Shown: positions 1 to 63,342 of the stretch, piece by piece
How positions within the stretch are numbered: the first letter of the stretch is position 1
How the letters are laid out: every line of letters starts with the position of its first letter
From: Sabellastarte sp. h YS-2021
Taxonomy: Eukaryota; Annelida; Polychaeta; Sabellida; Sabellidae
Length of the DNA: 64,000 bases
Assembly (NCBI GenBank): GCA_964017235.1
Contig: OZ024935.1
Coordinates: forward strand, 31,785,596 to 31,849,595
Direction: 5' to 3'
Translations under genes and position numbers: made by a program
The notes under the pieces: generated by a model
Told to the model about the DNA's origin: nothing
Databases searched by the model: none
What the model saw: only the letters and a program-made list of their open reading frames with translations

Positions 1-2134
1 ATAATATAATATACAAAGGAAGAAAACATCCCTGGCCTTTTAATGCTAATTGACTTCCAGAAAGCTTTTGATTCTGTTTCTTGGAAGTTTCTACATTCTG
101 CCTTAAATTTGGTTGGATTTAAAAAAGGCTTTTGTCAATGGGTTAAGGTTCTTAACACCAGTGTAAAAGCTGCTGTTCTTCAATGTGGTGTACTTTCAGA
201 TTTCTTTGATATTGAACGTGGATGCAGACAGGGTGATCCAATATCACCTTATTTATTTATCATCTGTGCTCAGGTTATGTTTCTATTAATAATAAATGAA
301 AAAAAAATGAAAGGCATATATGTAAATGGCATAGAACATAAGATCACATAGTTTGCTGACGATACAACCTTGATCTTAGATGGAAGCAAAGAATCCCTAA
401 TAGCTGCCTTAAATGTCCTTGAGGTCTTTGGCTCTATATCTGGACTTCAGATAAATACTGAAAAAACCAAGCTGATTTGGATTGGAAAAAAATGATACTT
501 TTGTGACAAAATTGACATTGGGAAGAATTTGGACTGGGGAGCCACCACTTTCACTCTCTTGGGTCTCAATTTTTCAGTAGATCTCGGTTCTATTGTAAAC
601 TTAAATTATACACCAGTGATTCAAAGCCTGGAAGGACTTTTTCATGTTTGGAGCAAAAGACACCTTACACCACTTGGAAAAATAGCAGTCATAAAAACAT
701 TAGCCTTGTCAAAGCTCAATCACCTATTTCTGTCAATACCATCACCAGGAAAAGATATTTTCAAAAAAATAGAAACACTTTTTTATAAATTCATTTGGAA
801 TGGTAAGCCAGACAAAGTGAAAAGGACAATTTTGACAAAACAGTGCTGTGATGGTGGCTTAAATATGATAGAATTAAATAACTTTGACTGTGCACTTAAA
901 ATAACTTGGATACGCAGAATCTATTCCAGCTGCCACACACCTTGGTTAAAAGTTGCAGAACATTACCTTGGATCTTTTAAAAAACTTCTCATGCTTGGAT
1001 CAAGCTATGCTTCATATTTATCTAAGCAAACAAATAATAATTTTTGGGCTCAAACGCTAAATTATTGGAGTCGCCTGATAGCCAGTATTCCAATTAATAA
1101 CACAAATGATGCTTTAAGTGATTCCCTCTGGAATAATCCCAAGGTGTCCAAGCTTCAATTTTTTTTACCGAATTGGTTCAACAAAGGCATCGTATCAATT
1201 GGCGACTTAATTTATGAAAGTGGTGACTTTCTGTCTCAAAATATCATGAAAAAGACATATAATATCAAAACCAATTTTTTAGAATATCACCGAGTTACTA
1301 CTTGTGTAAATATATACATGGCAAAACTGAAGGAGAAATGTACAAGGCATCAAAAACCCCTCCTTCCAAATCAAATAAAAGTTTTACAAAAGTCAAAGAA
1401 AGGAAGTAAAGATTTCTATAGGATCCTCAATAAAGATGACCCAGGGAACCTTTTTTCGAATTACTCTTTTTGGGAAGAAGCTTTGCATATCAATATATCA
1501 AAGGACAAATGGAATCTAATATTCCGGATCTGTTTCAAAACTATAAAGAATAATGACATAATATGGATGCAATATAGAGTGCTATACAGAATTCTTGGAA
1601 CAAATGATTATGTTTTCAAAATTAATCGACGTATTGATGGTATCTGTAACTTTTGTAAACAGAAAAATGAAACCATAATACATCTTTTAGTTGAATGTGT
1701 TTTTGTAAGAAGATTCTGGTCTGAAGTAAGTACATTAATTAAATCAAAAATTGGGTTAAACTTGCCTGTGAATGCATGTAGCATAATTTTAGGAGATCTT
1801 TCAAAAAATGTATCAAATTTTCCAGTTAATGTAATCTATCTAACCGCAAAGTTTTTTATTTTCAAAATCTCAAGGTCAACTGGCATTTTGTCTGTTGGGA
1901 ATTTCTGTGAATATTTAAATAGAATATATCTTGAGCAGGAATATGTTGCTAAATTGGAATTCAAACATGGCAAATTTACAAATACTTGGAGTAGCTTTAT
2001 TGCATTGTTCTCTTGTTGAAAGTTAATGTAACCTTTTAAATTGCAATATTTTAAGTGATACCCACTGTGATACTGTACTATGTTGTTTGAAGTTTCTTGC
2101 TTTTTGTGAAATTGTATATACTGTGATTGTGATG

Positions 2135-17999: not shown

Positions 18000-18257
18000 A
18001 TGAAAATGAACAAATACACCTCGTTTGCCTTGCCTCTATTCCTCATTCTATGTTTCGAGTATACTTGGTCTAAACGTCCAAACATTGTGTTTATCTTGGC
18101 TGACGACTATGGCTATCACGATGTTGGGTATCATGGCTCTGAAATCAAGACCCCCACTCTTGACAGTCTGGCTGCTGAAGGTGTAACTTTGGAAAGTTAT
18201 TATGTCCAGCCTATTTGCACTCCAACTAGAAGTCAGTTACTCTCTGGACGTTACCAG
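18000..18257 (+). CDS. ARSB-like: ARSB-like exon 1: signal peptide and sulfatase signature
   Basis: Encodes residues 1-86 and ends in phase 0 at TACCAG|gtgatg. It contains the signal peptide, the metal-binding pair in FILADD and the [13 protein letters not shown] signature, whose Cys (residue 73) is the one converted to formylglycine in active sulfatases. Confidence 0.95.
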
Positions 18258-21200
18258 GTGATGCACTGCTTTAATTGCTCTATCTAGGATGTCCCACAGA
18301 AGCACTCGGTGAACCCCAAACTTTTTTCCTCACTGTCGAGTATAGGGATGGGTCGGTAGGCCCGGTATCTCGGTATCGAGAGCATTTTACTGAAATACCA
18401 TGACAAGATTTTAAAACCGCCACTTTGCTTGCCAACATATATAATGGAAGGAAGAGTACGTTAAACTATTAGAAACATACCCCAAATCTGAAGAAATTAT
18501 ATGCTTTTATCCCATATTTTTGTCCATTTACAGACTTTTAGAGCGATACGTTGAGCAGAACTGCCATGTTTTGGTTATGACACTTTATAACCTCAATTTT
18601 GCTTGTCAACTCATATAAATGAAGGAAAACTTAAAATATTGGACAGAAACCACAACTATGAAGATATTATACGTTTTTATTGCACATTTTGTGCATTTGG
18701 GAGCTTTTATTGCGACGTTGTTGCGAGGAAACGTCCATGTTTATTTGGAGTGTACTAACACGCGGAGTCCCGAATTCGGTACGGTTTTGCATTGGCAACC
18801 TCCCGATGTACATATTTTTCATACCGACCCATCCCTACTGTTGAGTAAATCACTTGTAACTTGAAATTATTACATTTAGAGTATTTTGTTTAAACATTTT
18901 CTGCAAATCTTTTGCAAGTATCAGATTTGATCTTTGATCACTGCTTCAAGGTTCAGTTGGGTCATCACATTGAAAAGGCCTTTAATCTCCCTTACCAATG
19001 CTCCTTGGGCTTTGAAACCCTGTTTCATGGTCAGACTACCTCCATTTTTGCTTTATACCTTGCAGGAGATAAAAACACAGTAGTGGACTAGTGGTCTTCT
19101 TGTATCTTATTTCACTTGAAATGTTTTAAAAATATATGATTATCTGTGGGGTTTTTATGCTAGGAAAAATGTCCATGTGTCATAAACATGCCTACAAATA
19201 AGTTTACACTGTGAAATCCTGTTTATGGGTGGAAATTCGTATATATCTTAAACTTGCCTAAACAAATAAGTGTACCTATATTAATATACAATTCTAAAGC
19301 CAAAAATAATATGAAAATAAAGGGCAGATAAAATTATTTACTGCACAGTTTTTGTAACCAATAATAATGAACGATTTTATAGGTGCTCTTCATTGTAAAT
19401 TGCAAAAATATTGCACATCAGAGCTTTAGTCTAAACAGCAACAATGTATCAATTTCTTTTTAAAAGAAAGATAAATGCAAACCAAAACTTAGAATATAAA
19501 GTATAAATTGTAAGGAAACCAAGAGAAAACAGAACGTATCAAACACCATTGACACAAAAATACCACAGATGTAATGTTACATCCAGTCCATGAAACTGTT
19601 GATTTCATGAAATGGACCATATATATATACAAAACTAGTTGCCCCCTTTCATGAATTAAGCAATTTGTCTAGAAGTATTTTTCTTTCTTCAGAACTAAGT
19701 ACACAGTAGACTGAGTTTTTGTCCCATCATCAATTGCTATTGACATAATGATGGTATGCAATGGTGATGCATAGCATTATTATATCCCCAGACGAAAGTC
19801 GGGGATATATTGGATTCAGGTCTGTTGTGCCGCCACCGTAGAAATTTCCTTGCGTAAGCGATAACTCAAAAACAGATCAGTGTTTTTTTTAAAAACTTGG
19901 TACACTGTTAAGGGTGGCCAAAGAAAGATTCCTATTTTAAAGTGACCTTAAACTCAAAATAATAAAGAACTTATTGCCACCTTAAGGTCAGAAGTTTGAC
20001 TTTTGGCCACTTAGAGCCCTCTAGGTCACAAACTATGAGGCTTATCTGGCTAAAAGTTTACCTGAGAACACATTAATATATTCTTAGTACATGTACCGAA
20101 AATCAAGACTTTAAGTTGAGGATACAATTCTGTTTGAGGCCCATAAAGACCCCACTTAGGGATTTTTTCCTACATTTTTCACATGTAATTGGTGATGGTA
20201 CAGAAACTCTGTGTAAGTAGACAGTGATTTCACTATTTATTCACCTATTTTGTTTTTGTATCATTGATGTGAACCAAATTATTTGCTTATGCTTATTTGC
20301 TGAATAGGTCTGAGTTTGTTTTAACTGCACTTATCTGAAAATTTTAGCCAAGCGTCGAACACATTTATCCAAAATTTGTCAGTTGTTCTATTTTTTAACA
20401 CTTGAAAATAACCAGGCCCAAAGTTTATTGTTTTAGTTGTATCAACATTGAAATTTCTTTCAAATAAAGTTATCCACAAGGATTTCCCTGTTGCCATAAA
20501 TAACCGCCTGATCCACGATATTTTCAGAGATGTAACAAAATCTTTAATATTAATCATTTTTAAGCCTCCAATTTTCTTGTCCAAAATAACTGTATGTCTG
20601 TTTATTTTATCTGGTTAAGAGGACCATATAAATTTGAATAGAAGCTCGTTTATTTCTTTGACAAAAGAATCGTCAGGATTTGGCAAGGATGTAAAGAGGT
20701 GATTTAATTTTGCTAATAGGAAGGTCTTAACTATTGTTATTTTACCTAATGGTGTCAGATACCTTTTGTTCCATTTACAAATTAGTGCCTTTATTTCTAT
20801 CATCTTTTGAACAAAATTCATTTTCAAGCAGTCATCCAAATTCACAGAGAAAAGAATACCAAGTAACTTGAAACTTGAAATTGCTTCAAGACTGCAATTG
20901 TTAATATTAATTGTATGTTTATTGTGTTTCTTTTTTCCAATCCAGGCTATTTGTGTTTTTTCTGTATTGACTTTTAATCCTGAAATACTGCCAAAAATTT
21001 CCAGAGTATTAAATGCTACATGTAATGATTCTATGCTGCCATCTAGTATCAAAGTTGTGGTGTCAGCAAACTGTGTTAGTTTGATTTCTACTTTTCCAAT
21101 TGAGATACCTTTTATTTTTTTATTGTTTTTGATCATAATTGTTAAAATTTGTGCTACTATTATGAATAAATATGGTGCAATGGGGTCTCCTTGTCTACAA

Positions 21201-24200
21201 CCACGCTGAATATCTATAAATTCTGATAATACACCACACTGAATTATAGTGGGCTTAATATTATGGTTAAACAGTTTAATCCATTTTATTAGATCTTTCG
21301 AAAAACCTAAGTATGCCATAGTTTGATAGATAAAAGACCAAGAAATGGAGTCGAATGCTTTTTCAAAGTCAATCAAGACTAGCATTCCAGGTAATTGTTT
21401 GTCTTCGGTAAATTTCATTATATCGAATATTAATCTGGTACATTCACTTATATATCTACCTGGAATGAAGCCACACTGTGTGTTATCAATAATCTGGCTG
21501 AGATGAGGCTTTATTCTATTGGCAATCGCAGCTGATGCTAACTTATATATGACAGACAACATTGACAAGGGTCGCCAATTTTTAATATTATTTCGCGGTT
21601 TACCCTTTTTGGGAAGGCATGTAATAACACACTGCCTTAACGATAGAGGAAGTAAACCCTTGTCAAAACTGTCATTGATCGCATAGGTAATACAAAATTT
21701 CAAGTCTTTCCAAAATACTTTTAAAAATTCAAATGAGAATCCATCCAGCCCAGGAGCTTTATTATTTTTAGTATTTTTAAGTGTCATACCAAGTTCGTCA
21801 ATGGAGAGATATCCCTCCATTTCCCTAGCTTGCTCCTTGTTTAGTTTTTTAATATTGTATTTTCTTAAATGGTTATCTCAATTGAATTTTTCAATTTTTG
21901 TATTTTCTCTAAACAAGTCCGCATAGAAGATTTTTATTTCATTCAAAATTCATTTTGATCCCTTGTGTACCTTTTATCTTGTTTTTGAAGATGCTTTATT
22001 GTTTTGTCCACATACTTGCCTTTTTCTAATGCACAAAAATATTTTGAAGGCTTTTCTCCCTCAGTAACCCATTGTGTCCTTGACCTTATCATATGTCCCT
22101 GCATTTCTTCTTGTCGAAAATCAAGGAGTTCATGCTTTTTTAGCTTCAGTAATTCAAGATCAGTGGTGCTTTCACCTAATTCTAATTTTTCTATTTCTAA
22201 AAGTAATAATTTCTCAAAATTTGAATTGAACTTCTTCTTAAAAGCTCCATATTTAATCGATTCTCCTCGAATCCTTAACAATAAAGCTTCGAAAAACAGG
22301 TCAGGGGCTATTGTTAAATGTATGTCTTGGTAGCAACATTTCTCCAAGAATTCAGGTTTGTATACAGGGACTGCATATTTTTGGTATTCTTCTCTTATAC
22401 ATTTATTAACTGAGCGAATATATTTTGAATCTTTTAATAAACTGTTGTTAAGTTTCCATGTTCCCCTCCCCCTTTTAAAGTTGCTAATTAAGAATGTAAG
22501 CTCTACCATTGAGTGGTCACTTCTATATCCAGGTCTAATATTTATACTATCTGTTAAGTCAGTGAAACCAGATGATACTATTATATAGTCTAGTCTTGAT
22601 TGCTTAAGTGGATTCTTTTTGCGCCATGTATACCTCTTTTTGTCTGGATTATAATATCTGAAGAGATCTACAAAATTATTTTCTTCTCTGAAATTGTTAA
22701 CAAAACTTCTGGATTTAGGGTTGTTAATAGAAACATAATTAAAGCTATCTAATGTCAGATTTAATGCCATATTAATGTCTCCACACCAAATTAGATAATC
22801 ATGGTTACTGGTATGCATTTTTTCACAAACAGAGGCATAGAAAACAGGGTCATCCCTGTTAGGTCCATAAATGTTTATGATTTTCAATTTTATCTCATTT
22901 ATTTGCATATTGATTATCAATAAATTTCCTTCATTATCAGTTTCATTACTTAGAATTTCGTATTCAAATTTATTTCCAAAAAATATGGCGACCCCCCTTG
23001 CATTATTTGCTACACCGTTCAAAGTAAAATTCTACAGAGTCTAATTGAGTTAAATGTGTGTCTTGTAGACAAATTATATCTGCTTCTGTGTTTTTCAAGT
23101 AATTAAGGACATCATATCTTTTCTTTCTATCCTTTAATCCCCTACAGTTTGCTGACAACACTTTGATCTTATCTAGAAAATTTCTTACCATTGGTAATTG
23201 TTTACAACATAATTACATTGATTACAGCTGTGGAGCCTACGAATCACCACATTAAACAACAGTATTTCCCCTGAACGACTTTTTAATTTCTTGCTGTTAC
23301 AAGGTGCACTTGACAAAATCTCGTGGATTTTACATTTTAAAACATTTTTATTGATGTTTCTAGTCAATATGTAAGTATTCAACTTATCAATTAATAAAAG
23401 GTAGACAAAAAAATGTTGGTAAGGTTGAACCTCAAATACAATATGCAGTGGACAAAACCAAAACACAAACACATATATACAATATAAAAGAGCCAACATA
23501 GCTGGGATACTTGAGCAGTTAAGCTGCTTGTCGTGTGACATACTTGATTATAGTTGTGTGGATATGTATTATGTCAAAACTAGATATAACAAAACATTAA
23601 GCCATTAATCAGCAGTATTTCTGCAACATGAACTCATCACTAGAATTCTTATACCTTTATAACTACAAACTTATTATAGGCCAATGATCATGAAATAATA
23701 GTATATTCTTGATTTCAATAATATATACCGTTATGTTTCGGCGAACTGAGTCATACCGATAGATTTCACAATGAAATACTTTTTTGTAAAAACTTTAATA
23801 TATCAAGTCAGCTGTTTTATTCACAATGTGCTTTGAAGCCCTTTAACTATAAAAGGAAATTATTACTCAGGGCTGTCAACATGCAGTATATGGTGGAAAA
23901 AAAATAAATAAAAATAAAAAATAATCCTCACTTTTATAGAATTAATACATTTTCAACCTGAATCTGTAAGTGTCAATAACAAGCTGATTTAAGCTCTTAA
24001 AATATGAAGAGTATAATATAAGTGTGTTCACACATGTGTCATATAGTACATATTTTGACATAGAATTCTACCATTGTTGTATCTTTAATACTATGAAGCA
24101 TACACCATGTTAGTATGGCCATTTCTGGTTCACCCTTGATTGGCATAAAAGAATAGCCAATGCTCTGTAACTACAGTCTGACCATTACCCTTTAATGTAT

Positions 24201-27200
24201 CCCTTTTAAGTATATTCAAAAGATGCAAATTGATTTTTGATAAAATTATTATGTTTAACAATTAAATTCAATGTACTAATTTGTCATGTATACAATATAA
24301 TATATAAGAAATCTAAAATTCTTAACTAGTCTTAGGCTTGAAAGTGTGCCATAATTTGACAAAACTTTAAATAGTCTTTCAGTAGGTTAATTATTTTCTT
24401 CTTTTTCTAGACTTTCGGAAACTACCAGTAATTGATTTATAACAATATAGCATTTACGAAAATCATGTTTTTCTTTCAGTTGTCTTAATTATAAATTGTC
24501 ATTATACAAGACAGTTACCTGGTAATAGTTTGACATATAATAGTTCACATAAATTCCTGTCTCAACCTTTATAGTGTCTGTCTGTTTTTCTTTTAGTTGT
24601 CTTAATTATAAATTGTCATTATACAAGACAGTTAATAGTTTTACATAAAATAATTCACTTAAGTTGCTGTCTCACCGTTCCCAGCGTCTGTCCAGCCAGG
24701 TTTTTGCCTGCCCACTTGGTCTCCTTGAACAAGTCAGGGTTCCTGAGAGAAAGTCCAACTCCCCACACCTTATCCGCTGCACTTGCCTCTATCAGTTTAT
24801 TCCCACTGGTTGAGAGGAGATATCCTTTAAGTTTTTCACTTTGGGAAAATTTCAGTAGCATAGCTTGAAACATGTACTCAGTTGACACTCTGTACCATTA
24901 TCATTTATCGAAGCCTTGGATTTTCTTCCCCAACTGTTTAACTTTTTCTGGGTCTTTTGTATCCAGGATTACCTCTGCTGCCTGGCTGTCACCAAAATGA
25001 AGGGCCTTCTTGTAAGTAAAGTAGTGCTCTGATGTTGGAAAGTTTTGACCTTCAGCTTGGAAGCAAAAGGGGTAAAAATTACTGAGAGGCGAGAACTTTG
25101 TGAAATAAGCCTGAATCCCATCTTTTGCTGGAGTGAATACCCTTTCTGGCAGTAAATCTGGGTACTGGATGGTGTCGATATTATCCACAGTATATATCCT
25201 CTCACCAAGATTGATCTTGTCAACATAGCATTTTGGGTTCAGTTCAGGGTATAATTCCCGCGCCTTAAAGTAGATAGGTAGCAGCATTTTCCTCCTTTCT
25301 GTCACTTCTTTTGGGTAGTCCTCTTGGATTGAAAGGTTATTGTTGCGCAGGACCTCTTTCTTGCTTAAAATAGCTTGCTTATCCTTCAAATTGCACAGTC
25401 TAAGTAAAACAGGACGCCTAGCTCCTTTCATGCCTCCTCCAATAAAGTGTACATTCTCAATATCCCGTGAGTCAAGATTTACCCCAACTTCACTCAAGGC
25501 CTGTATAGTTGAAGCCTCCAAATTCTGCTGAGTGTGACAATCAATGCCATATATTCTTATATTTTTTTTCTCGAATACGTTTCTTGCAGTATTAATTCTT
25601 CCCTTATGCCCCTGTTCCACCAAAGGACTAAGCCCCGACCCTGTCCCCGACCCTTAATCGTGGACAGTCTGTGACAAAAAAGGTAAAATGGGCGGGACTA
25701 CTGAAAGTCTGGGATTAAGTTCAGATCGGCCTGAGGAGGCCCCAGACTGGTCCCACAGAGTCCCAGACTGGTCTGGGACTAAGAACCGATTAAGCCATTT
25801 TTCTAGTCATAGACATACCGACTGGGTCCCAGGACGCCTCAGGCCTCCTGGGACTAAGCCCCGACTAACCCCTGACTAAGTCCCGGCGTCCTCAGGCATC
25901 CCCAGACCGAGATAGCCGATTTTTGTTTTGCAATGGGTCTCAGGGTCGCAGGAAGCCTGGGACTAAGGAATAGAGGGTCTGGGACTAAGAGTCGGGGATT
26001 AAGGGTCGCAGGCGGCCTGGGACAACATAGGACTGTGTAAATTTGGTCTGAGGAGGCCTGAGGGAGCCTGGGACTGGACATTTTGTTTATGGCGGGAAAA
26101 AATAATCAGTTGGGGTCGGGAGAAATATCAAACAGGACGCCTGGGACTAAGCAAATTTTTGCAACCGACCCCCCAAAACCCCGTAATCGGGAGCCTTAGT
26201 CGTGTGGTGGAACACCCACATTAGCTTTTTGTTTTCTAATTTCACTTCATTTATTTCTTTTTCCAACAACTGTTGTTTTATTTCTTTTTGTTCCCATTTG
26301 GTTTCAAGGTCTTTGATTTTTTCAACTTCTGACAAATTGCTGTGTGAATGTTCTATTGTTCCAAGTCTGTTTGTAATTGGAGCCAATTTTTCATCTAACG
26401 TTTTACCAATTTCCTCTAAAATACCTTCCATATTCAATGTTTATATTTAAAACAAAAAAACAAAACAAAACAAAACAAAAAAAAATATATATATATATTT
26501 GTCCTCTGTGTGAAACTTCTTCAATCAAGGAATATCAATTATCAAACATTTTTACAATTTCCTCTAATATATCTTCCATTTTCAATGTTTATATTTAAAA
26601 CAAAAATATATCTCCTCTGTGTGAAACTTCTTCAATCAAGGAATATAAACAAGTTTTTTCCCCAGAATAACGGACAAGTTTAAATAATGTGTGCATTCAC
26701 CATATATGCATTCACCATATAAAGTCACTGGTTAATTGAACTATTTGACCTCTGTCTTCTATAGTGTAGGCCCAATATTAAGAGTCATATTGAAAAGGCA
26801 CATGTGTCATTTTATCTGTTAATAACTTTTTTTCCTTTTGATTTTTTAATAATTTTATGTTTCCATCATTGCCCTCACTATTTAACTATTTGCTATAACA
26901 TTTTTTGGCTTGTCTTATGCTATTTAAACATGTTTATTTTTAGCATATTATCCACACAAAATTACTTTCACTTGTTACCCATGTGCTGTCATGTTGAAGT
27001 CTTAGCTAAAGTAACTGGGAAAGTGTTTCATAAAGGTAGACAATATTCAATTAAGTTTTAATCACTTGTTGGGCGGGTTGCATGTAACCAACATGGCTAT
27101 TAGATTGATGTGTCCATCGACTGTCCGTCCTTCTGTCTGTCACCATTTTGATTTCCAGACTCCAACCCAAACACACTTCTGCCGATCGATTTGAAACTTA

Positions 27201-30200
27201 ACTGGGTGGTATGGCATCGTCTAGGCTAGGTTGTTTTTGAAGTTAGGGCCATTTGGAAAAAATAAGATGGCCCTCATGGCCACCATTTTGAATTTCCATT
27301 TCTGGGCTCTAACTTGAAAATGCTTCACACGATCGATTTGAAACATAAAAGAGTGGTAGGGCACCACCTAGGCTAGGTTGCTTTCGAAATTGGTGCCACT
27401 TTGAAAAACAAGGTGGCTACCATCTTGAAATTGCTTTTCCAGACTCTAACTTGAAGATGCTTCTGTCAACTAATTTTAAACTTAACGGGTTGGTATGACA
27501 CCACCTAGGCTAGGTTGTTTTCGAAGTTGGTGCCATTTGGAAAAACAAGATGGCCTCCATCTTGAAATTCTGTTTCCGAAATCTAACTGGAAGACTGTTC
27601 TGCCGATCAATTTGAAACTTAACAGGTTGATAGGATCCCAACTAGGCATTTGGAAAAACAAGATGGTGACATGACTGTCATCTTGAAATTCTGTTTCTGG
27701 GCTCTAACTCAAGATGCTTCTGCCTATCGATTTCAAACTTCAGGGAGTGGTAGTGGTGTTCCCAACTTCCCATCTCCTATTTTTGGGGCAAACAAGGGTC
27801 AGGTATTGCCCACCATTTTATTGTCCCACTTCCTACCTTCCGGTCAGCCGTTTAAGGATTCAGTATGTTTCTTACTGGACAATGGAAGAAAGACCAGAGC
27901 TTTGCACATACTCAGTGTAACTTTTTACCGTAATTTCCATTCTCATGAGAGTGTTCTCCCTCCGAGGATAACTTCATTTTTCCTATTCGCCAAATAACAA
28001 TGAGGTGGAGGAAGTGTACTTCTCTATGTCAAGGTTGCTTAGGTTGATATCAGTCCCTTTTTCTGTGAAAATGGATTGGTGGTTTGTGCCGGATCCCAGC
28101 CCTGATACTGATTGTGCAACCAGCCTTTTGGATCTACAACCCCAGTTTTTTTGTATGATTTAGATTCACACAGGCCTACAGCATGGCATTATATGGCCAC
28201 CACAAGCTAATTGTCTTCCAACAAATATCCCAACAATTGCTGACAAGCTGAAACAGATAGGTTATGCAACACATGCTGTTGGGAAGTGGCATGTTGGATT
28301 TTATAAGTATGAATGCACTCCAACATACAGAGGATTTGATACATATTATGGTATGTATTGACAATATTGATTACCTTCATTGTTTTGCTTTTTTGAAGAA
28401 TTCAAGTTTTAAATTTTATTATTCCCCTGCTTGTTGTCTCTGCAAAAGGGGGAGCTAAGTCACTAATTCCCATTGTCTAGTTACAATTTTCAAACTTCAA
28501 TCTCAAAGCATTTTAAAGTCTGATTGTGGCTGCTACATTTCATATGAAGAGGGAACAAGACACAACATTTAGCCAAGATGCTTCATGGAAAATTAAAATG
28601 AATGTGTTGAATAATTAATAATATGCAAAGGCTGTATTTTCAAATTTTCGTGGATTTAAGTTTTTTCTTTGTTGATCATGTCCACGACATTTGTGAGACT
28701 TATTTCATTCAAGTGAATGTCCTCAGGCAGGTTAGACAGTGCCTAACAGATGAGGCTGCTATCCTGGTGGCAAATGCCTTGGTGAGTAATTGTCTTGATT
28801 AATGTATTTAGTTCCTCAGATATCTCTCCAGCTCTTACATATGAAAACTCCAGTGTATTCAAAATACACTTTTACAGATTGTCATAAACTGTAACAGATG
28901 CAAACAGGTTGCTCCAATTCCCAAAAAAACTCCATTGGTTGCCTGTTGAATATTACTGCATCTTCAAAATGGCCACACTTGTTTGTAAATTTATCCATAG
29001 TGGTTATCATGGCTGTCTCCTCCTTTATCTCTTCATAGTGGTAAATATGACACAAGAAACAGTCGACCAGATAAAAAGTTTTTGAAGGGTCTTCAATTTT
29101 ATCCAATATTAATTTTACAGGGTCTTCTGTACATAGATACATCCAAGAAAGGTTTTGGTCATAGTTTTTCCTGTGATGCGGGCTCAGTTTGACTGAACTT
29201 ACATGTCTCAGAAAAAGCTATTACCTTATATCTAGAATTAACTTGCCTGTATCTTATTTCTGAAATGAACTTGCCTGTTTTCAAAAAATCTAATATCTTA
29301 ACTCTTTGATTAGGCTTTTCCCTCATAGCTTAAAGATTACTCGGCATCTCTATATCATCCAGTTGACTATATATACAGAATAATGATTACTGAATTAGTT
29401 TCTAGTGTTGTGCCTTAGAGTTTGCCTTGGGAAGAGATTAAGCACTGTAACAGTCTTTAATCGAATAAAACAGAATAATTGTTTTACAACATGGCTTGCA
29501 GGTGATTATACCAGTCAAACTTTCTGTAGAATTCATAGTTTTTAACTCCAGCCCATAAAGGCTGGAGTTATAGTAGTCCTCTGTGCCGTCCGGGCGGCGT
29601 CAGCAGCCATAAAGCTTGTGGGTGTTTCATAGCCTAAACCCGTACACGGATTTTCACCAAATTTTCAGGGGATGTTTACCCCAAGAGGATCTAGAGCTGA
29701 TTAGGTTTTGGGGAGTATCCGCTAACACTTGTTGCCATGGCAACACTTTATGATTTTCGGGTTTTAAAGTTTGTGGGTGTTCCACAGACTAAACCCCTGC
29801 ACAGATTTTCACCAAATTTTCAGGATATGTTTATCCCAAGAGGATCTAGAGCTGATTAGGTTTTGGGGGGTATCCGGCGGCAACTGTTGCCATGGCAACA
29901 CTTTAAAATTTCAGGGTCTTAAAATTTCTTATAAAATCTTTCATATTTTCTGTAACCTAAAATATTGCAGCTAGCTTCATCAGATTTGCACAAAATATAA
30001 ATGGATAGGAAATCTTGCCTGAGAGTAATTGTGACCTTGTTTTGAAACAAAATGACCGCCATATCACATCTTTAATACCAAATAGGAGGGTCATTATATC
30101 AAAAAGGCCTTATATCTCCCTTATAATTGCTTCTAAGGCAACAATATATGAAAACTACTTGTAAGAAATCATGGCCTGTGTATCTTTTGTAGAACATTTT

Positions 30201-36200: not shown

Positions 36201-39200
36201 TGCGTGCATTAGTTAGTCACGCAGATTTCTCCAAAACTACTACAGCTACAGATTTTTTGTAAATTAATTGTCCCAATGAATTTTCATGCCCTTGAAAAAA
36301 TTTTTGGTTTTATTGACTTAGGCCTAAAGATAAGTGAGTAATAGCAATCTTAGCTACTTTGAGTAAAGGGCTCATAACTCAAAAACTATTGCAGTAACAA
36401 CTTTTTCTTCAAATATGTTGTTCAGCTACTTTGTCCTTAGCTATAAGATGGTACATAGTTTGGGGTCCCATTGCATGCCATAAGTGAGTAATAGCTATTT
36501 TCTCATTTGTAGCTAAATAACACAAGAAGTAAATGTCAAATATCTTCAAAAGTATTGAAGTTAGGGAAATCTTTTCAAATATGTTGTCCATCTTCTTTTT
36601 GGTAAGCTATCACATACTAAAGTTTCAGACCTGTTGCGCCTTGGATAGCTGAGTAATAGCTACTTTGAAATTCTGACTGTTGAGTAAAGCTATTGTAACT
36701 AAAAAAGTGTTGCAGTTAGAGTGTTTTCCTAAAATATGTTGTTCAGCTACTTTGTTCTTAGCTATAAGATGGTACATAGTTTGGGGTTCTATTGCTTGCC
36801 ATAAGTGAGTAATAGCTATTTCCTCATTTGTAGCTAAATAACAGAAGAAGTAAATGTCAAATATCTTCAAAAGTATTAAAGTTAGGGAAATCTTTTCAAA
36901 TATGTTGTCCATCTACTTTTTGGTAAGCTATGACATAGTAAAGTTTCAGACCTGTTGCACCTTGGATAGCTGAGTAATAGCTACTTTGAAATTGTGACTG
37001 TTGAGTAAAGCCATTGTAACTCCAAAACTATTACAGTTGGAGTATTTTCCTAAAATATGTTGTTCAGCTACTTTGTTCTTAGCTATAAGATGGTACATAG
37101 TTTGGGGTTCTATTGCTCGCCATGAGTGAGTAATAGCTATTTTCTCATTTGTAGCTAAATAACAGAAGAAGTAAATGTCAAATATCTTCAAAAGTATTGA
37201 AGTTAGGGAAATCTTTTCAAATATGTTGTCCATCTACTTTTTGGTAAGCTATAACATAGTAAAGTTTCAGACCTGTTGCACCTTGGATAGCTGAATTATA
37301 GCTACTTTGAAATTCTGACTGTTGAGTAAAGCCATTGTAACTCCAAAACTATTGCAGTTAGAGTATTTTCCTAAAATATGTTGTTCAGCTACTTTGTCCT
37401 TAGCTATAAGATGGTACATAGTTTGGGGTTCTATTGCATGCCATAAGTGAGTAATAGCTATTTTGTTATTTGTAGCAAAATCATGACATAAGTAAATGTC
37501 AAATATCTTCAAAAGTATTAAAGTTAGGGAATTCTTTTCAAATATGTTATCCGTCTACTTTTTCATAAGCTATCACATAGTAAAGTTTCAGACCTGTTGC
37601 ACATTGGCTAGCTGAGTAATAGCTACTTTGAAATTCCACAGTTGAGTAAATCCATTGTAACTCCAAAACTATTGCAGTTACAATATTTTCGTAAAATATG
37701 TTGTTCAGCTACTTTGTCCTTAGCTATAAGCTGGCATGTAGTTTGGGGTTCTATTGCATGCCATAAGTGAGTAATAGCTATTTTCTAATTAGTAGCAAAA
37801 TAATGACATAAGTAAATGTCAAATATCTTCAGAAGTATTAAAGTTACGGAATTCTTTTCAAATATGTCATTCATCTACTTTTTTTGTAAGCTATCACATA
37901 GTAAAGTTTCAGACCTGTTGCACATTGCATAGCTAAGTAATAGCTACTTTGAAATTGTGACTGTTGAGTAAATCCATTGCAACTCCAAAACTATTGCAGT
38001 TACAACTTTTTCTTCAAATATGTTGTTCAGCTACTTTGTCCTAACTATAAGATGGTATATATTTTGGGGTGGTATTGCATGCCATAAGTGAGTAATAGCT
38101 ATTTTCTTATTAGTAGCAAAATAACAACATAAGTAAATGTCAAATATCTTTAAAAGTATTAAAGTTAGGGAAATATTTTCAAATATGTTATTCATCTAGT
38201 TTTTGATAACCTATCACATAGTAAAGTTTCAGACCTGTTGCACATTGGATAGCCGAGTAATACCTACTTTGAAATTGTGACTGTAGGGTAAATGCATATA
38301 GTTTGTGGTTCTATTGCATGCCATAAGTGAGTAATAGCTATTTTCTTATTTGTGGCAAAATAATGACATAATTTTTCTCAAATAACTGCTTCATCTACTT
38401 TTGGGAGAGCTTTCACATGGTGAAGTTTCAGACCTGTAGCTAATTATTCACCTACTCAAAATGAGTAAATGATAATTATCTCTAAAAGTATTGCGGATAT
38501 CCAATTTTTATCAAATAACTCATTCGTCTACTTTTGGGAGAGCTTTCACATGGTGAAGTTCCAGACCCGTAGCTAATTACTCACCTACTCAAAATGAGTA
38601 AATGTGAATTATCCCTAAAAGTATTGGGGATATCCAATTTTTCTTAACCTCTTCGCCACCAAGGGAACAGCATTCTACTATACCAAAGGAAAATCCGGGA
38701 TGAAGAGCTTACAGACAGTTTAGGTTGCTAAAACACACACCACAAGTGATTTCGTTGTCCATAACGGCCTCGTACATAATATTTTATTTACCGTATTTCA
38801 GTATACCAAGACGTTTAATTCTACAGTGCTGAATGAAAGCTTGCATATCATATGGGGGTGTCGACTGCTAGCCGACAGACATGGTACTGTAGAATACACA
38901 TTGCTGTCGACTGTTGGTCGACAGTTAAGGTCTTTAAGGGGTTAAATAACTCATTCACCTACTTTTGGAAGAGCTTTCACTTGGTGAATTTTCAGACCCG
39001 TAGCTAATTATTCACCTCCTCAAAATGAGTAAATGCTAATTATCTCTAAAAGTATTGTGGATATCCAATTTTTATCAAATTACTCGTTCATCTACTTTTG
39101 GGAGAGCTTTCACATGGTGAAGTTCCAGACCCATAGCTAATTACTCACCTACTCAAAATGAGTAAATGTGAATTATCTGTAAAAGTATTGCAGATATCCA

Positions 39201-42200
39201 ATTTTTCTCAAATAACTCATTCACCTACTTTTGGGAGAGCTTTTACTTGGTGAGGTTTCAGACCCGTAGCTAATTATTCACCTACTCAAAATGAGTAAAT
39301 GTGAATTATCTCTAAAAGTATTGCGGATATCCAATTTTTATCAAATAACTCATTCATCTACTTTTGGGAGGGCTTTCACATGGTGAAGTTCCAGACCCGT
39401 AGCTAATTACTCACCTACTGAAAATGAGTAAATGTGAATTATCTCTAAAAGTATTGCAGATAGCCAATTTTTATCAAATAACTCATTCACCTACTTTTGG
39501 AAGAGCTTTCACTTGGTGAATTTTCAGACCCGTAGCTAATTATTCACCTCCTCAAAATGAGTAAATGCTAATTATCTCTAAAAGTATTGCGGGTATCCAA
39601 TTTCTATCAAATTACTCGTTCATCTACTTTTGGGAGAGCTTTCACATGGTGAAGTTCCAGACCCGTAGCTAATTACTCACCTAATCGAAATGAGTAAATG
39701 TGAATTATCTGTAAAAGTATTGCAGATAGCCAATTTTTCTCAAATAACTCATTCACCTACTTTTGGGAGAGCTTTCACTTGGTGAAGTTTCACACCCGTA
39801 GTTAATTATTCACCTACTCAAAATGAGTAAATGCGAATTATCTCTACAAGTATTGCAGATAGCCAGTATTTCTGAAATAACTCATTCACATACATTTTGG
39901 AGAGCTTTCAATTAGTGAATTTTCCGATCTGTAGCTAATTACTCACCTACTCAAAATGAGTAACTGCCTATTATCACTAAAAGTATTGCAGATAGCCAAT
40001 ATTTCTCAAATAACTCATTCACCTACATTTTGGAGAGCTTTCACATGCTAAATTTTTTTAATGAATTTTTTAAATAGTTTTTAATGCATTAAAATTCATG
40101 AAATCATGCACTAAATCAATTATAACTTGAAAAGTATTACATTTAGAGCACCTTGTTAAAATATGTTATCTTTAGTACATCTAATTTATATGGCGGGAGA
40201 TAAATGCATGCGTCAGAATGCTTGTTCATTGATAAATTAGATTTCTTGGATTTGATCATTGCTTACAATAACTAGTGTCGGTTCTATCACAATGGGCAGT
40301 TAGGTGGTAACTTACAGGAGGGTTTTTAGTGTTGATGAACTATGGTGTTGATGCTATATTTCAGTTTTATGGGCGATTTTAGTGCATCTATTTATTGTGA
40401 TACAAATTATGTACCATATTCTCTTTTTCATTTCATTATGATAAAAACAACAGGGTTGTGTTGTCAGTTACAGTATTGCCAGTATTTTAGGCCTGTGTTA
40501 GTAAAGTACAGCAGAAACTCTATTATCTGATCATCCTGGGGAGTAACGATTAGGTCGGATAATAGAAAAGTTGGATAATAAAAAGCCTGAAATAACAGGT
40601 TTAAATGAAGTTGGGAGAGTGACTTTGAGGTTGGATAATTGAAAATTTGGATAATAGAGGGTCAGTTAATAAGAAGTTCTACTGCGCCTTATATGCCACA
40701 GGTCTAATTAAAATCCATGAGGATTTTAAATCCGCCTAGACCAAATTAAAATTTTGATTTCACCATGGTGATTTTGAAATTTTTGAATAATTTCGTATTT
40801 CATTTACACACAATCAAGTAACAAATTACAGTTTCAACAATTTTTTTTTGTTTTTGACATTTCAGATGATGATTTTAGACAGTAATTCACAGGGCACACA
40901 GAGTTATAGCACATGTACTTAAATGACTTTTTATATGTTGCTCTCAAATCCACAAAATTGTTCATTTCTTGAAAGAGGTAACTGGTAATGTTTACATTTT
41001 GTAAAATTGGCAAAAATTGATTTGACCATTTCATGAAGTGACTTATGAGTAATACTTTCAGGTAAGAAAAATAAAGTTTTGTGCAAAAAACTTCAGATGT
41101 TCTTTCTCCTTTACCTGGACTCTTGAAATTATATGTAAATGCTACTTACTCACCCTTACTCATGTCAAGCAATATCAGGACAAGTACTAAGATAAAGACA
41201 ACCGTTAAATCAATTGATGAAGTAACTTCTACAAAGTGGACAAGTAAAATAAAAAACGTATGCCTGAAGAAGTTGTTGGAATATTATGTCTAAATGCTAC
41301 TTTCTCATTTCTGAGCACATTTTAAATATGATGTGGACCAAAAATATATTTATTTTATTGGGTATAAAATGTGTTCTTATATGTTCGGTAAATGAAATTT
41401 TGTGATATCTTACTACATATTGAATATGTGTTGTTTGGGAACATTTTGTTTTAATTTAAAATCTGCCTTGTTATTTTCTATGGTTAATTATCTAGGATAT
41501 TAATTTCATGTAGTACACTAGTACCAGATTGAATGTCTACTAGGTGAACTTTTTAATCTTGTCCAGTCAAAATTAAAAATTTAATGTTGTTTAGGCAACA
41601 TTTAATATTTTACTAAAGTTAGCTGATAAAATTTAAATCAAAATTTTAATTAGGTTTAGGTGGATTTTAAATCTAACTGGGCAAAACAACCAATTTCACC
41701 TTGGCAAGATTACAATTTTGATTTTGCCTAGGCCGATTTAAAATCCGCCTGGAATTTAATTTGGCCTGTGACAATAATATTATTGAGTACTAAGCCATTT
41801 TAACTTTCGAGAGAATTTTGCAAACACTGTATCTCAGTTGTTTAGTTGTTTGTACTTTATCCAGCAAAGGTAAGGCAAGTCCCAGAGAAGAGATCTTGCA
41901 CAATATTGACCCACTTTTTGCACCAAAAGGCCAGCGTCTGTATAACCACACCTTTGACACTCGTGTGAGGGCCGCCATCAGAGTGGGTGAATGGAAGTTG
42001 ATTACAGGTGATCCGGGTGAGTATAAGATCTAGTATAGCCAATGACAATATGGCCAATGTATTTCATTTGTTTTTCTGTACTTTTTCAGAATGTAGCTTC
42101 AAAAGGTTATTATAAAAATGTTGAGCAGTCAGAAAAGTAATTACTTGCTAATCTTCAACCCATTCATTGGGTATTTCACTGTTGTTGTTAACCAACTAGT

Positions 42201-58049: not shown

Positions 58050-60138
58050 ATGTCTTCTCCGGGCCAGAAGCATGGTAGCTGTGGCCATATCATGGCTAGC
58101 TTCGACAGCCATTGTTTCTGCGCACGTTGCAGAGAGAAGGGTAAAGGTACAGACCCCTGTATTAACCATAATGATTGCCAGGCCTGTAATTCTTTGCCTG
58201 AGGAACAACGCGTTCAGTGGTCTACCCCCAGTTATCGATTAAAGAAAGAAAAGCGGGACTTAAAGAAGTCTTCTGATACTCCCATCAAGCAATCTGACAG
58301 TTCCACCCTCATTGACCCTCTGTGACGGTAGTGGGGGCTGTGGACGGCCAGGGGATGACTCAGTCTCCTGGTTCAGGTACATCTACAAAAAAGAAGTCTA
58401 CATCTTCTGAGAAGAAAGTTTCCACTTCTAAACATGCTAAGTCTTCAGAGAAGCCGGTTAAGTCGCCTACCCCTCACAGATCCTCAGCTGACGCAAGGAT
58501 TGATGAGCTGGACCAGAAATGGTCCAATAGGTTTAATAGACTGGAGACTATCTTGCTTGCAAAGACTGTGGATAAGGAACCTACCTTCTCAACTGTTAAA
58601 GTAGCTCCTACTACTTCAGCTCCGGCTGGTATCTCCAAGTCAACGGAACCCTTCATCCGACCATCAGATACTGTTCAGACTTCAGATTTGGCCGGTAGCC
58701 ACAACTCCCCTCAGAGTCAGGCCACCAACAAGTCGCTTTCTTCCGCTTCTGATAGCCAACGCCCATCTACTTCAGATTTGCATGGTGTATCTCAGACTGC
58801 TCTCAGAGCTCAGTCAACCAGCAAGTCGCGTAAGGAGAAATGAGTCACCGACCGACCCTCAGACCTTGCTGGTACTGACCCACCATCTTTTCAACAGGTT
58901 TCCAGCAGGTCGTCCTCAGCACCAGCCGGCCGACAGAGCCCACTGGCTATGGATACTGATTCCGACTCTGATTTCTCTGATCAACCGCCAGTGGACCTTT
59001 TGTAGAAGGGGAGTTGTCCGACCAGGACCCAGATGCTGTTTCTGCCGACCCCGACCAGACCCTCTCAGAGGACCAGAACTATAGAGAAACTATGAGAGGG
59101 ATCAGGTCCTACATGGGGTGGTCGCATATACCTGATATGGACATAAAGGCTGCTACATCCGACGACAACCCTTTCGCTGGTCCACAGTCACAGCCTACAG
59201 GAAAGGTCTCCCTTAAAATGCCAACCGACGAGTGGTTGTGCAAGAAAATGGGCAAGCTAAACCTGACTCTGGTGGAGGGTTACCCCTCACGTAGCTCAGA
59301 AGCGGGAGGTCTGTTAAAGGACCAGTTTGTGAAGCCGGCACGTTCACAGGCCAAATGGTGCGGCTTTGTATCTGATCAACAGAAAAGTGACACTGGTACT
59401 GAGAAAACTGTTACTTCTTGGAATACAGACGCCTGTAAGGTCAACAGTACCTATAGCTGTATTGCTAAGGCAGCAGGTGTTTCATCTACACCATCAGCCT
59501 CCCGACAAATCTCTCAGGACAACCTAAGACGTTGGGAGAAGTCGGCAAGGGAAGCTTCCACCATATGTAACCAAGCTGCTGGTTTCAACAGGTGTTTGTA
59601 TAGAGTCCAAGACAACATGAAAACACAGTTAAAGATCATCAAGACAGATATGGCCAAAGGGAAGTCGTCTTCCAAAGCAGCTGGCACGGCCGACGAGCTG
59701 CAATTTTTGATGAACTTTAATGCTAGTATTACCCAGGCCATGGCAAAGACTCTAGACCATCTGAGTGACTTTGTTACAGTGGCCAATACGACCTTGACTC
59801 GCAGAGACTCGTATTTGTCGCACCTCAAAGCTGGTATCAAACCAGACACCCTAGCCTCTCTCAGGACCGCACCTCTCCACATTCCAACGCTTTTCCCTGA
59901 TGAAGTCCTCAGGCAGGCAGAACAGGACATTGCCGCTTTTGAAAGCAAGGGTCAGCATCAGCCAGGGAAGAAAGGTCGGTTTCACCCCTATGATCGTCCT
60001 GACAAATGTGGGGATAACAGAAAACAGGAACGACCAGCATGGAAAAACATTGGTCAACGAGGACAGGGCAAGAAAGCTAGGGGCAAGGCCTCCTACTACT
60101 CTTTGAGACCGGCCAAGGGCCAGCAGTCTTACAAATGA
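58050..60138 (+). pseudogene. DIRS gag-like ORF1, three frames
   Basis: It starts with a Cys-rich block (CGHIMASFDSHCFCARC, then DPC and DCQACNS) typical of DIRS ORF1. The frame shifts at about 58320 into a Ser/Thr/Lys-rich linker ending at 58843, then into a third frame open from 59014 to 60138, which encodes the larger conserved part and a basic C-terminus. The function is assumed to be packaging of element RNA. Two frame changes and a stop make it non-functional. Confidence 0.75.
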
Positions 60139-60157
60139 CAGTTATTGTGTAAACAGT

Positions 60158-62176
60158 TTGACAAGAAGACTGCTGGCCGGGAGCACAGTTCACAGAAAAA
60201 CAGACACTTTTTTAAACTTAAATGTTGTGCCTCGTGTTCATACTGCGCCCGGGCATTCACAAAAGAAAAAAATAAGTCCCGGGGCAGCAGTTTGTTTTTC
60301 TCAGAGCAATTACAAAATAAAATCTGTGAAACTTGCTTCTTGTGTCACTGCATTATCTTGTGTCAAATCTGTGGTAAATGTCAGAAATGCTGTCACAAAT
60401 CCCTCTGTAGGGGCCAGACTTCAAAAATTTTGGCAAGTTTGGTGGAATCTGGGGGCCAGCCCCAAAATAGTCCAGATCTTAAAGGAAGGTTACACTCTCC
60501 CCTTCCAGAACAGGCCCCTCCTGTCAAGGCACCCTACGGTCATAAGCCGTTATGTGAACCACCACAGGAACAGCTACCTGTCGGAGGCTTTGCATCAGCT
60601 TATTTCCAAAAATGCAGTCGAACGGGTGCAAAACCCAAGATCTCTAGGGTTTTTCAACAGACTTTTCCTAGTGCCAAAACCCAATGACAAATGGAGACCC
60701 ATTCTAGACCTAAGCAAACTGAATCCTTTTCTCAGGGTGGAGAAATTCAAGATGGAAACACCGGAAACCATCAGAACTTCCCTGCAACAAGGAGAATGGG
60801 TCACCTCAATAGACTTCAAAGACACCTACTTCCACATACCAATACAGGAACAATCCAGAAAATTTCTGAGATTTCACGTCCAAGGTCAGACATACCAATT
60901 CAAGGCCCTGCCCTTTGGTCTGTCCACAGCACCTTTGGAGTTCACCGTGGTAGCCAAGGAAGTAAAGCTAATGGCCACACACAAGGGTATAAGGATCCAC
61001 CAGTACCTAGACGACTGGTTGGTGAGAGCCAAGTCCCACCAAGTCTGTCTCCAGCATACCAGGGACCTGCTGAAAGACCTGGGCTGGATAGTCAACTTAG
61101 AAAAATCAGAGCTGGAACCGAAACAAGTCTTCGACTTTGTAGGTTACCAATTCGACCTCAAAGCTGGTCGGGTCCGACCCACACCAGAACGGTGGCAGAA
61201 TCTCAAAGCAAAGATTCAAGCTATGCTAGCCCGACCTTCCTGTCGGGTCCGACAGTTCATGTCCTTGATAGGTCTCCTAACGGCCACAGAAAAGCAAGTT
61301 TATCTAGGCCGACTACACATGAGGCCTATACAGTGGCACCTGAAAAACAACTGGAGAGTACCGGAATCACTAGAAAAGGTCATTCCAATACCCACTTCTC
61401 TGCACCCCCATCTAGAATGGTGGTTAGAAGAAGACAACGTGCTACACGGCCAACCGTTACACCCACTAAAACATGCTCTGCAGATCTTTACAGATGCATC
61501 AAAAGAAAGGTGGGGCGCTCACTTAAACAAGCACAAGCCAAAGGCGTCTGGTCTCTGCCAGATAGCAGGCTACACATAAATTACCTAGAGTTGAAGGCAG
61601 TCCTTCTAGCTCTAAGGGATTTTCAGCAACACGTAGCCAAACCAAATAGTCCTTGTAGCTACAGACAACACCACAGTAGTTTCTTACATAAACAAGGAAG
61701 GCGGCATGAGGTCAGGCCCACTCTGTGCCCTACTGTGGAGAATTTTGACATGGTGTACGGTAAACCAAGTTACTCTCAAAGCCCGGCATATTCCAGGCCG
61801 GTTGAATGTGGTGGCGGACAAACTGTCCAGACTGGGCCAGATTATTCAAACCGAATGGTCTCTCCTCACAGAGGTTTTTCAGACCATATGCACCAGGTGG
61901 CACCGACCTCAAATAGACCTCTTTGCCACGCGGTTCAACAACAAACTCCCTCGGTTTGTCTCACCGGTGCCCGACTCCCTGGCCACTGCAGTCGATGCAC
62001 TCAGTCTGCCATTGGAGGATCTGGATGCCTATGCCTTCCCACCAGTAGCCATCTTGGGCAAAGTAGTGCAGAAGCTACTAGACTCCCCAGGCAACAGGAT
62101 AATCCTGATTGCTCCAGGTTGGCCCAACATGCCTTGGTTTTGGGACCTAGTGGACATGTCCAGCCAAATCCCATAG
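60158..62176 (+). pseudogene. DIRS reverse transcriptase-RNase H ORF2
   Basis: RT motifs: VPKPNDKWRPILDLSKLN, VTSIDFKDTYFHIP, FKALPFGLSTAP and catalytic YLDDW at about 61003-61018. RNase H starts with FTDASKERWGAH near 61485 and ends with ARHIPGRLNVVADKLSR. A Trp/Pro-rich region follows (IDLFATRFNNKLP, AYAFPP, LIAPGWPNMPWFWD), which lies where Dam-like methyltransferase domains are annotated in other DIRS elements. The frame is lost between about 61525 and 61640 by two compensating shifts. RT and RNase H make the cDNA that the recombinase inserts. Confidence 0.88.
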
Positions 62177-62179
62177 AGT

Positions 62180-63342
62180 CTGCCCAACCTACCAAATCTT
62201 CTGACACAGCCCTTCAACCAGACCCCTCACAGAAATCTGTCAGGGCTGAATCTCCATGCATGGCTCCTAGAGCCTCAGCAATCAAAGAGCAGGGCTTCTC
62301 TGAGGCAGTGGCGACAAGAATTGAGGCTCCTCAAAGAGGATCCACCAGATCAGTCTATGAGGCAAAGTGGGCCATTTTTACAAAGTGGTGCCTCACTAAT
62401 AAGGTGGACTTCGGGGCTCCCCCGTAACCTCAATCGCCGACTTCCTTCTCTATCTTTTCCAAGATAGGAAGTTACAGCCCAGTACCATTGATGGGTACAG
62501 ATCCGCCATTGCTGATAAGCTAGGGAATTCCTCTCTTAACATCAGCAAGGATGAAAATCTCACTCGTCTCCTGGACAGTTTCCACAGAGACAGGCCTAAA
62601 GGTCGGAGGGGCATCCCTTCCTGGAACCTCTCCCTGGTTTTACACCAGTTGACCAAAGCTCCTTTTGAGCCTCTTAGAGACGCCTCCTTGAAGCTTTTGA
62701 CCTTCAAGACGGTTTTCCTCTTAGCCCTTGGCTCGGGCAAACGTAGAAGTGAGATTCATGCTTGGCAAAACAGGAACATCAGGCACCAGTCTGACTGGTC
62801 CAAAGTCTCCTTGTACCCTTCACCCAGCTTTCTCTCAAAAGAACCAGCTGGCCAAGGAGGGTCCAGAGAGTGTGGCCCCAGTGGTTATTCCAGCCCTGGC
62901 CCCTACCCTGGACAAATCCCTCAAGTCTGACAGGTCCCTCTGCCCAGTCAGAGCCTTGCGCTACTATTTGGACAGGACCTCAGACCTCAGGCAGAATAAG
63001 GAGTTAGTTTTTGTCTCCTTTAAGAAAGGTTTTGACAAAGACATCTCCCCTGCCACTATCTCCTCATGGATCAAACAGACTGTGATCCTATGTTATGAGC
63101 TCTCGGACCAAGAGTCCCACACCCTGCATCAGGTCAAGGCCCATGATGTCAGAGCCTTTGCCGCTTCTAAAGCCTTCCAGTCGGGAGTCTCTTTAGAACA
63201 AATTCTATCAGCTTGCCATTGAAAGTCGCATAACACCTTCACACAATTTTACTTGAAGGATGTGGCTTGGGTTGACTCAGAGCTCTACCACCTGGGCCCT
63301 ATAGTGGCTGCACAGCAGATCCACCAACAGCCCAAAATATAG
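62180..63342 (+). pseudogene. DIRS tyrosine recombinase ORF3, broken
   Basis: The N-terminal core-binding part lies in one frame to 62427, shifts at a run of C (about 62420), continues to about 62838, shifts again, then runs to 63342 with one in-frame TGA at 63221-63223 where a Trp codon is likely. Catalytic residues are visible: Arg in SGKRRSEIH (about 62735-62760), the H-x-x-R of AHDVRAFA (about 63140-63165), and the Tyr of TFTQFYLKDV, which falls after the TGA. So the nucleophile is not made from this copy without readthrough. Confidence 0.83.

What the first reader, a model, noticed from the sequence alone, without database searches (positions are those of the whole stretch)
24655..25623. 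LINE ORF1 protein with an in-frame NADAR (YbiA-like) domain
An L1-type ORF1 (coiled coil, RRM-like part, C-terminal domain) runs with no stop or shift into a NADAR domain, shown by [28 protein letters not shown] and [13 protein letters not shown] in order. NADAR proteins remove ADP-ribose from guanine bases and are partners of DNA-ADP-ribosylating toxins in bacteria. A retrotransposon carrying one could reverse ADP-ribosylation of its own nucleic acid, perhaps countering host PARP-like defence. The fusion is seen directly; the role is inference. I do not know whether it has been described.
Basis: partly seen in the sequence, partly recalled or inferred. Interest (0 to 1): 0.87.

Follow-up and report, generated by a model that had tools for sequence, protein, structure and literature searches.

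The report
LINE ORF1 carrying an ADP-ribose-removing domain
This is a dead copy of a large family of jumping genes in an animal genome; intact relatives encode an RNA-binding-type protein with a built-in enzyme domain of a kind known to strip ADP-ribose off guanine, and that domain looks strongly selected.

The parts
20298..26994 (-). decayed LINE copy, about 92.5-96% identical over long pieces to six close copies; its last ~1 kb (3' end with poly-A) is missing at 20298; 5' end about 26931-26994
   Evidence: blastn to L009-L014
26222..26431 (-). ORF1 N-terminal coiled coil (residues 1-71 of P0001), in a different frame from the rest
   Evidence: tblastn, 93% identity; frames
25608..26220 (.). 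613-bp insertion inside ORF1 with imperfect terminal inverted repeats (GTTCCACCA..GACTAAG); absent from the six close copies
24904..25569 (-). ORF1 RRM-like part, CTD and N-half of NADAR, one open frame
   Evidence: tblastn to P0001 from residue 84; NADAR profile 9-82, E 1.7e-13; relatives
24898..24903 (-). two tandem in-frame stop codons in the middle of NADAR
24658..24897 (-). C-half of NADAR, same frame; ORF1 stop codon at 24655-24657
   Evidence: NADAR profile 85-163, E 4.8e-21
23023..24654 (-). long AT-rich region between ORF1 and ORF2 (its last part holds N-terminal endonuclease codons in another frame)
   Evidence: compare spacers of about 1.3-1.5 kb, 27-32% GC, in 7 relatives
21943..23022 (-). 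ORF2 endonuclease part
   Evidence: Pfam PF03372 below its cut-off (E 0.012); 95% to the ORF2 of a close copy
20615..21820 (-). ORF2 reverse transcriptase part, L1-like
   Evidence: RVT_1 5.1e-33; human L1 ORF2p 4.1e-52 against R2 9.2e-27

Best explanation
The window holds an old, broken copy of a lineage of L1-group (L1/Tx1-type) LINEs in which ORF1p is an L1-type protein (coiled coil, RRM, CTD) with a C-terminal YbiA-type NADAR domain. Supported by results here: the layout, its presence in many diverged ORF1s of one genome, unbroken aligned catalytic residues, strong purifying selection on NADAR, co-inheritance with the rest of ORF1, and retrotransposition marks. Inferred: if ORF1p coats the element RNA as L1 ORF1p does, its NADAR acts on that ribonucleoprotein and hydrolyses ADP-ribose from guanine bases of the element's RNA (or of cDNA at the insertion site), keeping the template readable when host or environmental ADP-ribosyltransferases modify it.
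Against: No enzymatic activity, expression or RNA substrate is shown. Synonymous sites between families are saturated and the codon model had kappa fixed at 1, so omega is approximate. The fetched copies were found with a query that includes half of NADAR, so NADAR-less families could be under-sampled; the searches meant to test that (PF02994, reverse transcriptase) did not complete. The Arg of P. nicotianae (R79) is replaced (K298: 27 K, 4 R, 2 G, 1 N, 1 H) and D86 aligns with a Lys in P0001. [quoted passage not shown] E. coli YbiA was less active on RNA than C7 NADAR. Some hits lack a called NADAR: P0011 and P0013 of 14, and P0011, P0017 and P0025 of 23; P0011 has a NADAR deletion, P0013 and P0017 are truncated, P0025 is a 200-aa ORF1-like protein without it. 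One open genomic copy lacks NADAR (L050). No Scabin-like writer was found in the genome; that search rang in none of its control genomes either.
Confidence: 0.55

Rival explanations
1. NADAR serves ORF1p only as an extra RNA-binding or assembly module; its catalysis is irrelevant.
For: It is fused to an ORF1 RNA-binding part in 35 of 40 fetched loci in one frame, and 42 of 107 collected proteins have the ORF1 CTD as well as NADAR.
Against: The aligned E264, K271 and E344 do not vary in 35 of 35 ORF1s, which go down to about 30% identity to L009.
Confidence: 0.15
2. NADAR acts on small molecules (riboflavin-pathway intermediates, ADP-ribose signals) or on products of RNA repair rather than on guanine in the element's nucleic acid.
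For: NADARs are described as acting on riboflavin intermediates, and viral NADARs were proposed to act on soluble ADP-ribose derivatives or by-products of RNA processing (passages, one section read). The Ectocarpus paper suggests RNA processing.
Against: Fusion to an RNA-binding-type protein points to a nucleic-acid substrate; the NADAR and YbiA proteins tested also hydrolysed guanosine-ADPr (passages).
Confidence: 0.25
3. One-off fusion or chance: a LINE ORF1 next to an unrelated NADAR fragment.
For: The window copy is broken by two stops and an insertion.
Against: Intact fusions in many diverged own-genome loci and in other deposited proteins.
Confidence: 0.01

Closest known systems
Tx1 LINEs of the Pacific oyster with ORF1 hits noted as YbiA-family NADAR (PMC12477816, Genome Biol 2025; passages read)
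   Same: L1-group LINE, ORF1 with a YbiA-type NADAR
   Different: In the passages seen, one sentence with a supplementary figure that I could not see; no test of selection, co-inheritance or ORF2 context there. The oyster sequences were not at hand, so whether this is the same clade was not tested.
[quoted passage not shown]
   Same: a retrotransposon that carries YbiA-type NADAR
   Different: LTR element, domain in Pol, brown alga; probably an independent gain (inference)
Human LINE-1 ORF1p (PDB 2ykp/2yko)
   Different: no NADAR in the matched chains; sequence identity about 15%
Phytophthora nicotianae NADAR (8bau) and E. coli YbiA (2b3w)
   Same: NADAR fold, 34-35% identity over the aligned residues; catalytic Glu and Lys aligned
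   Different: stand-alone domains of 189 and 168 residues, not joined to a LINE ORF1
DarT1-NADAR toxin-antitoxin systems
   Same: same domain superfamily; guanine-ADPr hydrolase by published assay (passages)
   Different: no Asp at the position two before the superfamily Glu (L or I in 19 of 19); in the loci read, ORF1 is followed by ORF2, not by a DarT gene

Membership tests
NADAR superfamily, YbiA type | PF08719 over the curated cut-off | tested here: met
   Window halves 51.6 and 76.1 bits (cut-off 35.1); P0001 148 bits; five further ORF1s 129.8-149 bits
NADAR superfamily, YbiA type | NADAR/YbiA fold | tested here: met
NADAR superfamily, YbiA type | catalytic Glu and Lys plus late-strand Glu | tested here: met
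   E264, K271, E344 in 35 of 35; mapping by hand
NADAR superfamily, YbiA type | hydrolysis of guanine-ADP-ribose | not testable with these tools
   needs a biochemical assay
L1-group (L1/Tx1) LINE | ORF1p with coiled coil, RRM and CTD | tested here: met
L1-group (L1/Tx1) LINE | ORF2 with endonuclease and L1-like reverse transcriptase | tested here: met
   RT and/or EN in 20 of 20 long loci, both in 19; L1 ORF2p is the best solved relative. Of three further ORF1s read 2.3 kb downstream, two showed no ORF2 and one a distant endonuclease
L1-group (L1/Tx1) LINE | poly-A tail and target-site duplications | tested here: met
   six of six close copies; TSDs of about 7-13 nt read by eye, the shortest weak
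L1-group (L1/Tx1) LINE | placement in the Tx1 rather than the L1 clade by RT phylogeny | not tested
   no reference Tx1 sequences at hand
DarT1-associated NADAR antitoxin | catalytic Asp two residues before the superfamily Glu | tested here: not met
   L or I there in 19 of 19; position taken from the numbering

The most novel reading that the evidence does not exclude
Animal LINEs of this lineage carry a guanine-ADP-ribose eraser on their RNA-coating protein because their hosts mark foreign RNA or cDNA by guanine ADP-ribosylation, so that retrotransposons, and the bivalve and annelid picornaviruses reported to carry NADAR, have independently taken the same counter-weapon. Clams with guanine-N2 DNA ADP-ribosylating activity (CARP-1 type) would hold the writer.
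Probability: 0.2. Interest if true: 0.88.

Novelty: new member of a known kind. Interest (0 to 1): 0.52.

Why it matters
The physiological role of NADARs in eukaryotes, animals included, is called unclear (PMC11125620, passages). A domain kept with invariant aligned active-site residues in 19 ORF1 groups (each under 90% identical to the others) of one genome gives a concrete, testable role: reversal of guanine ADP-ribosylation on a mobile element's nucleic acid. If so, guanine ADP-ribosylation could be a host defence against selfish RNA in invertebrates.

Tried and rejected
Splicing of the NADAR-plus-spacer piece: L050 joins the ORF1 CTD to ORF2 in one 1519-aa frame without NADAR, with a 34-nt poly-A and a 9-11-nt TSD. 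Sequence 99-100% identical to its two sides lies about 2.3 kb apart at one other locus. The junction shows no GT..AG and a few untemplated or mismatched bases, so I read it as a one-off internal deletion and not as splicing or a NADAR-less family. In one search the only other row covering the ORF1 side of the query was the parental locus, but 40 of 155 candidates were scored. Three other rows also end before NADAR, in frames of 161, 90 and 238 aa; two of them have a partner row beside them on the same strand; none was fetched.

One-off fusion: rejected. A non-canonical code or readthrough of the two stops: not needed, because close copies are open there; L014 (= L007) has one stop at the first of the two places.

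Origin of NADAR: a tree of 98 domains put 49 of 53 LINE-linked domains on one side with three others, at support 49; four LINE-linked ones fell near stand-alone NADARs. Unresolved.

Host writer: Scabin-like family PF22596 (accession recalled) had no match in the own genome, and none of the control genomes rang, so this is inconclusive. PF24596 (recalled as pierisin-like) did not complete.

Unbiased search for NADAR-less ORF1s: PF02994 and a reverse-transcriptase query did not complete; nor was PF08719 in the own genome. A second LINE at the window start has no ORF1 match in 3.5 kb upstream, uninformative. Read 2.3 kb downstream of three ORF1s, L051 and L052 show no ORF2 match and L053 a distant endonuclease (30% identity). 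Left open.

Close-pair dN/dS for NADAR: counts are tiny and mixed. L033/L034 give 0.18, but L032/L037 give 0.91, L035/L036 0.97 and L022/L023 1.84. L022, L028 and L037 were dropped before the tree-wide fit; L012, L014, L024, L030 and L046 failed the single-frame rule and were not among the 35.

Full report
WHAT IS THERE. The feature is on the minus strand. A frame open from 25569 to 24904 holds an RRM-like part, a CTD and the first half of a NADAR domain. Two tandem stops follow (24898-24903). The same frame then gives the second half of NADAR to 24658. Pfam NADAR scores 1.7e-13 and 4.8e-21 for the two halves. The coiled coil is at 26222-26431 in another frame, behind a 613-bp insertion with imperfect inverted ends and a one-base gap near 25565. 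ORF2 follows downstream with endonuclease and reverse transcriptase, itself frameshifted and lacking about 1 kb at its 3' end.

THE FAMILY. A protein search returned 14 relatives, among them P0001 (387 aa, 94% identical) and six ORF1-NADAR proteins of 393-399 aa at 53-62%; a profile search returned 23. In the window's own genome (1.786 Gb) the query gave 150 scored matches out of 1925 candidates, window copy included, from 92-93% identity for the closest copies down to about 30%; a few rows are pieces of one locus, and four end before NADAR. I fetched 40 of these places (20 with 8.4-8.5 kb, 20 with about 1.5 kb). In 39 of 40 the ORF1 profile is matched to position 381 or beyond, counting pieces; L030 stops at 345. 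The 20 long loci all carry endonuclease and/or reverse transcriptase of ORF2 downstream, 19 both; 9 of 20 keep an ORF2 frame of at least 1,100 aa open from stop to stop. Bias: the query contained the first half of NADAR, so these counts cannot give the share of NADAR-less relatives.

RETROTRANSPOSITION. Six close copies are 98-99% identical to each other and about 92.5-96%, over long pieces, to the window copy. All six end in poly-A, start at different 5' points, and are flanked by short duplications at different targets (duplications of about 7-13 nt read by eye). By these marks the lineage was active recently; no shared target site is visible in the six.

SELECTION AND DESCENT. On 19 ORF1s under 90% identity, a codon model gave omega 0.112 (coiled coil), 0.098 (RRM), 0.066 (CTD) and 0.050 (NADAR). 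Fixing omega at 1 cost 216, 280, 347 and 613 log units. Synonymous change between families is saturated and kappa was fixed at 1, so the values are approximate; close pairs have too few changes to decide. Trees of RRM-CTD and NADAR share 7 of 16 splits (permuted mean 0.15, maximum 3) with no conflict at support 90 or more. Among the 107 proteins collected in three searches, 42 had the ORF1 CTD as well as NADAR. A tree of 98 domains does not resolve the origin.

A NATURAL DELETION. One row had a 1519-aa open frame with a match that stopped before NADAR. Fetched as L050, it fuses the ORF1 CTD directly to ORF2 and lacks NADAR and the spacer. It has a 34-nt poly-A and a 9-11-nt TSD. Its two sides match one other locus at 100% and 99%, about 2.3 kb apart there, and the ORF2 side matches a dozen more places at 99%. 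There are no splice signals at the junction. I read it as an internal deletion. If it arose during reverse transcription, the RNA still held NADAR; so this copy shows neither that NADAR is dispensable nor that it is needed.

MECHANISM. NADARs remove ADP-ribose from guanine in DNA and in RNA, not from phosphate ends (PMC11543638, PMC11125620, PMC11833690; passages). ORF1p of L1 coats its own RNA (recalled). I infer that NADAR works in cis on that ribonucleoprotein. A plausible writer exists in some bivalves: guanine-N2 DNA ADP-ribosylating activity was found in six edible clams (PMC11209040, passages). Bivalve and annelid picornaviruses are reported to carry NADAR (PMC9503650, section 19 read). 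Both bear on this genome only if the host is a bivalve, which I did not establish. That NADARs erase CARP-1 marks is an assumption of PMC11543638, not tested there. A search for the Scabin-like family found nothing but had no working control.

PRIOR WORK. The Ectocarpus paper (PMC12477816, passages) describes NADAR in Gypsy elements and states in one sentence that ORF1 proteins of several oyster Tx1 LINE families also appear to be YbiA-type NADARs, with an RNA-processing guess. The listings of five searches (4 to 20 papers listed each, many more held the terms except, where all 4 were listed) showed me no other such report; they cover only open-licence PMC papers, and I saw listings, not the papers. 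Verdict: the layout is known in outline; the evidence that the domain has intact aligned catalytic residues, is selected and is widespread in one genome is, as far as those listings show, new.

Noticed in passing
L050 (G000:C2:121912900-121918500): A LINE copy with ORF1 CTD fused to ORF2 in one 1519-aa frame, lacking NADAR and the spacer; 34-nt poly-A, 9-11-nt TSD; both sides 99-100% identical to another locus.
   Followed up: partly
23023-24654 and loci L009, L011, L015, L018, L021, L025, L026: An AT-rich stretch of about 1.3-1.5 kb separates ORF1 from ORF2 in seven loci of five families; between families blastn found no similarity outside the ORF2 start. Unusually long for a LINE (recalled).
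   Followed up: partly
25608-26220: 613-bp insertion with imperfect terminal inverted repeats inside ORF1; no other copy in the window or in the loci searched.
   Followed up: partly
18061-18260 and about 28155-28355: Stretches that read like arylsulfatase exons ([13 protein letters not shown]..), so the LINE may sit in an intron; by eye only.
   Followed up: no
1-2019 (+) with L049: A second LINE with an L1-like reverse transcriptase, ORF2 broken by stops, no ORF1 match in 3.5 kb upstream.
   Followed up: partly
36375-38292, 38370-38642 and 38944-40044: Tandem arrays: a 321-bp unit (6.0 copies) and a 133-bp unit (2.1 and 8.3 copies).
   Followed up: no
58322-63222: A run of ORFs that reads like a DIRS- or Ngaro-type retroelement; by eye only.
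   Followed up: no
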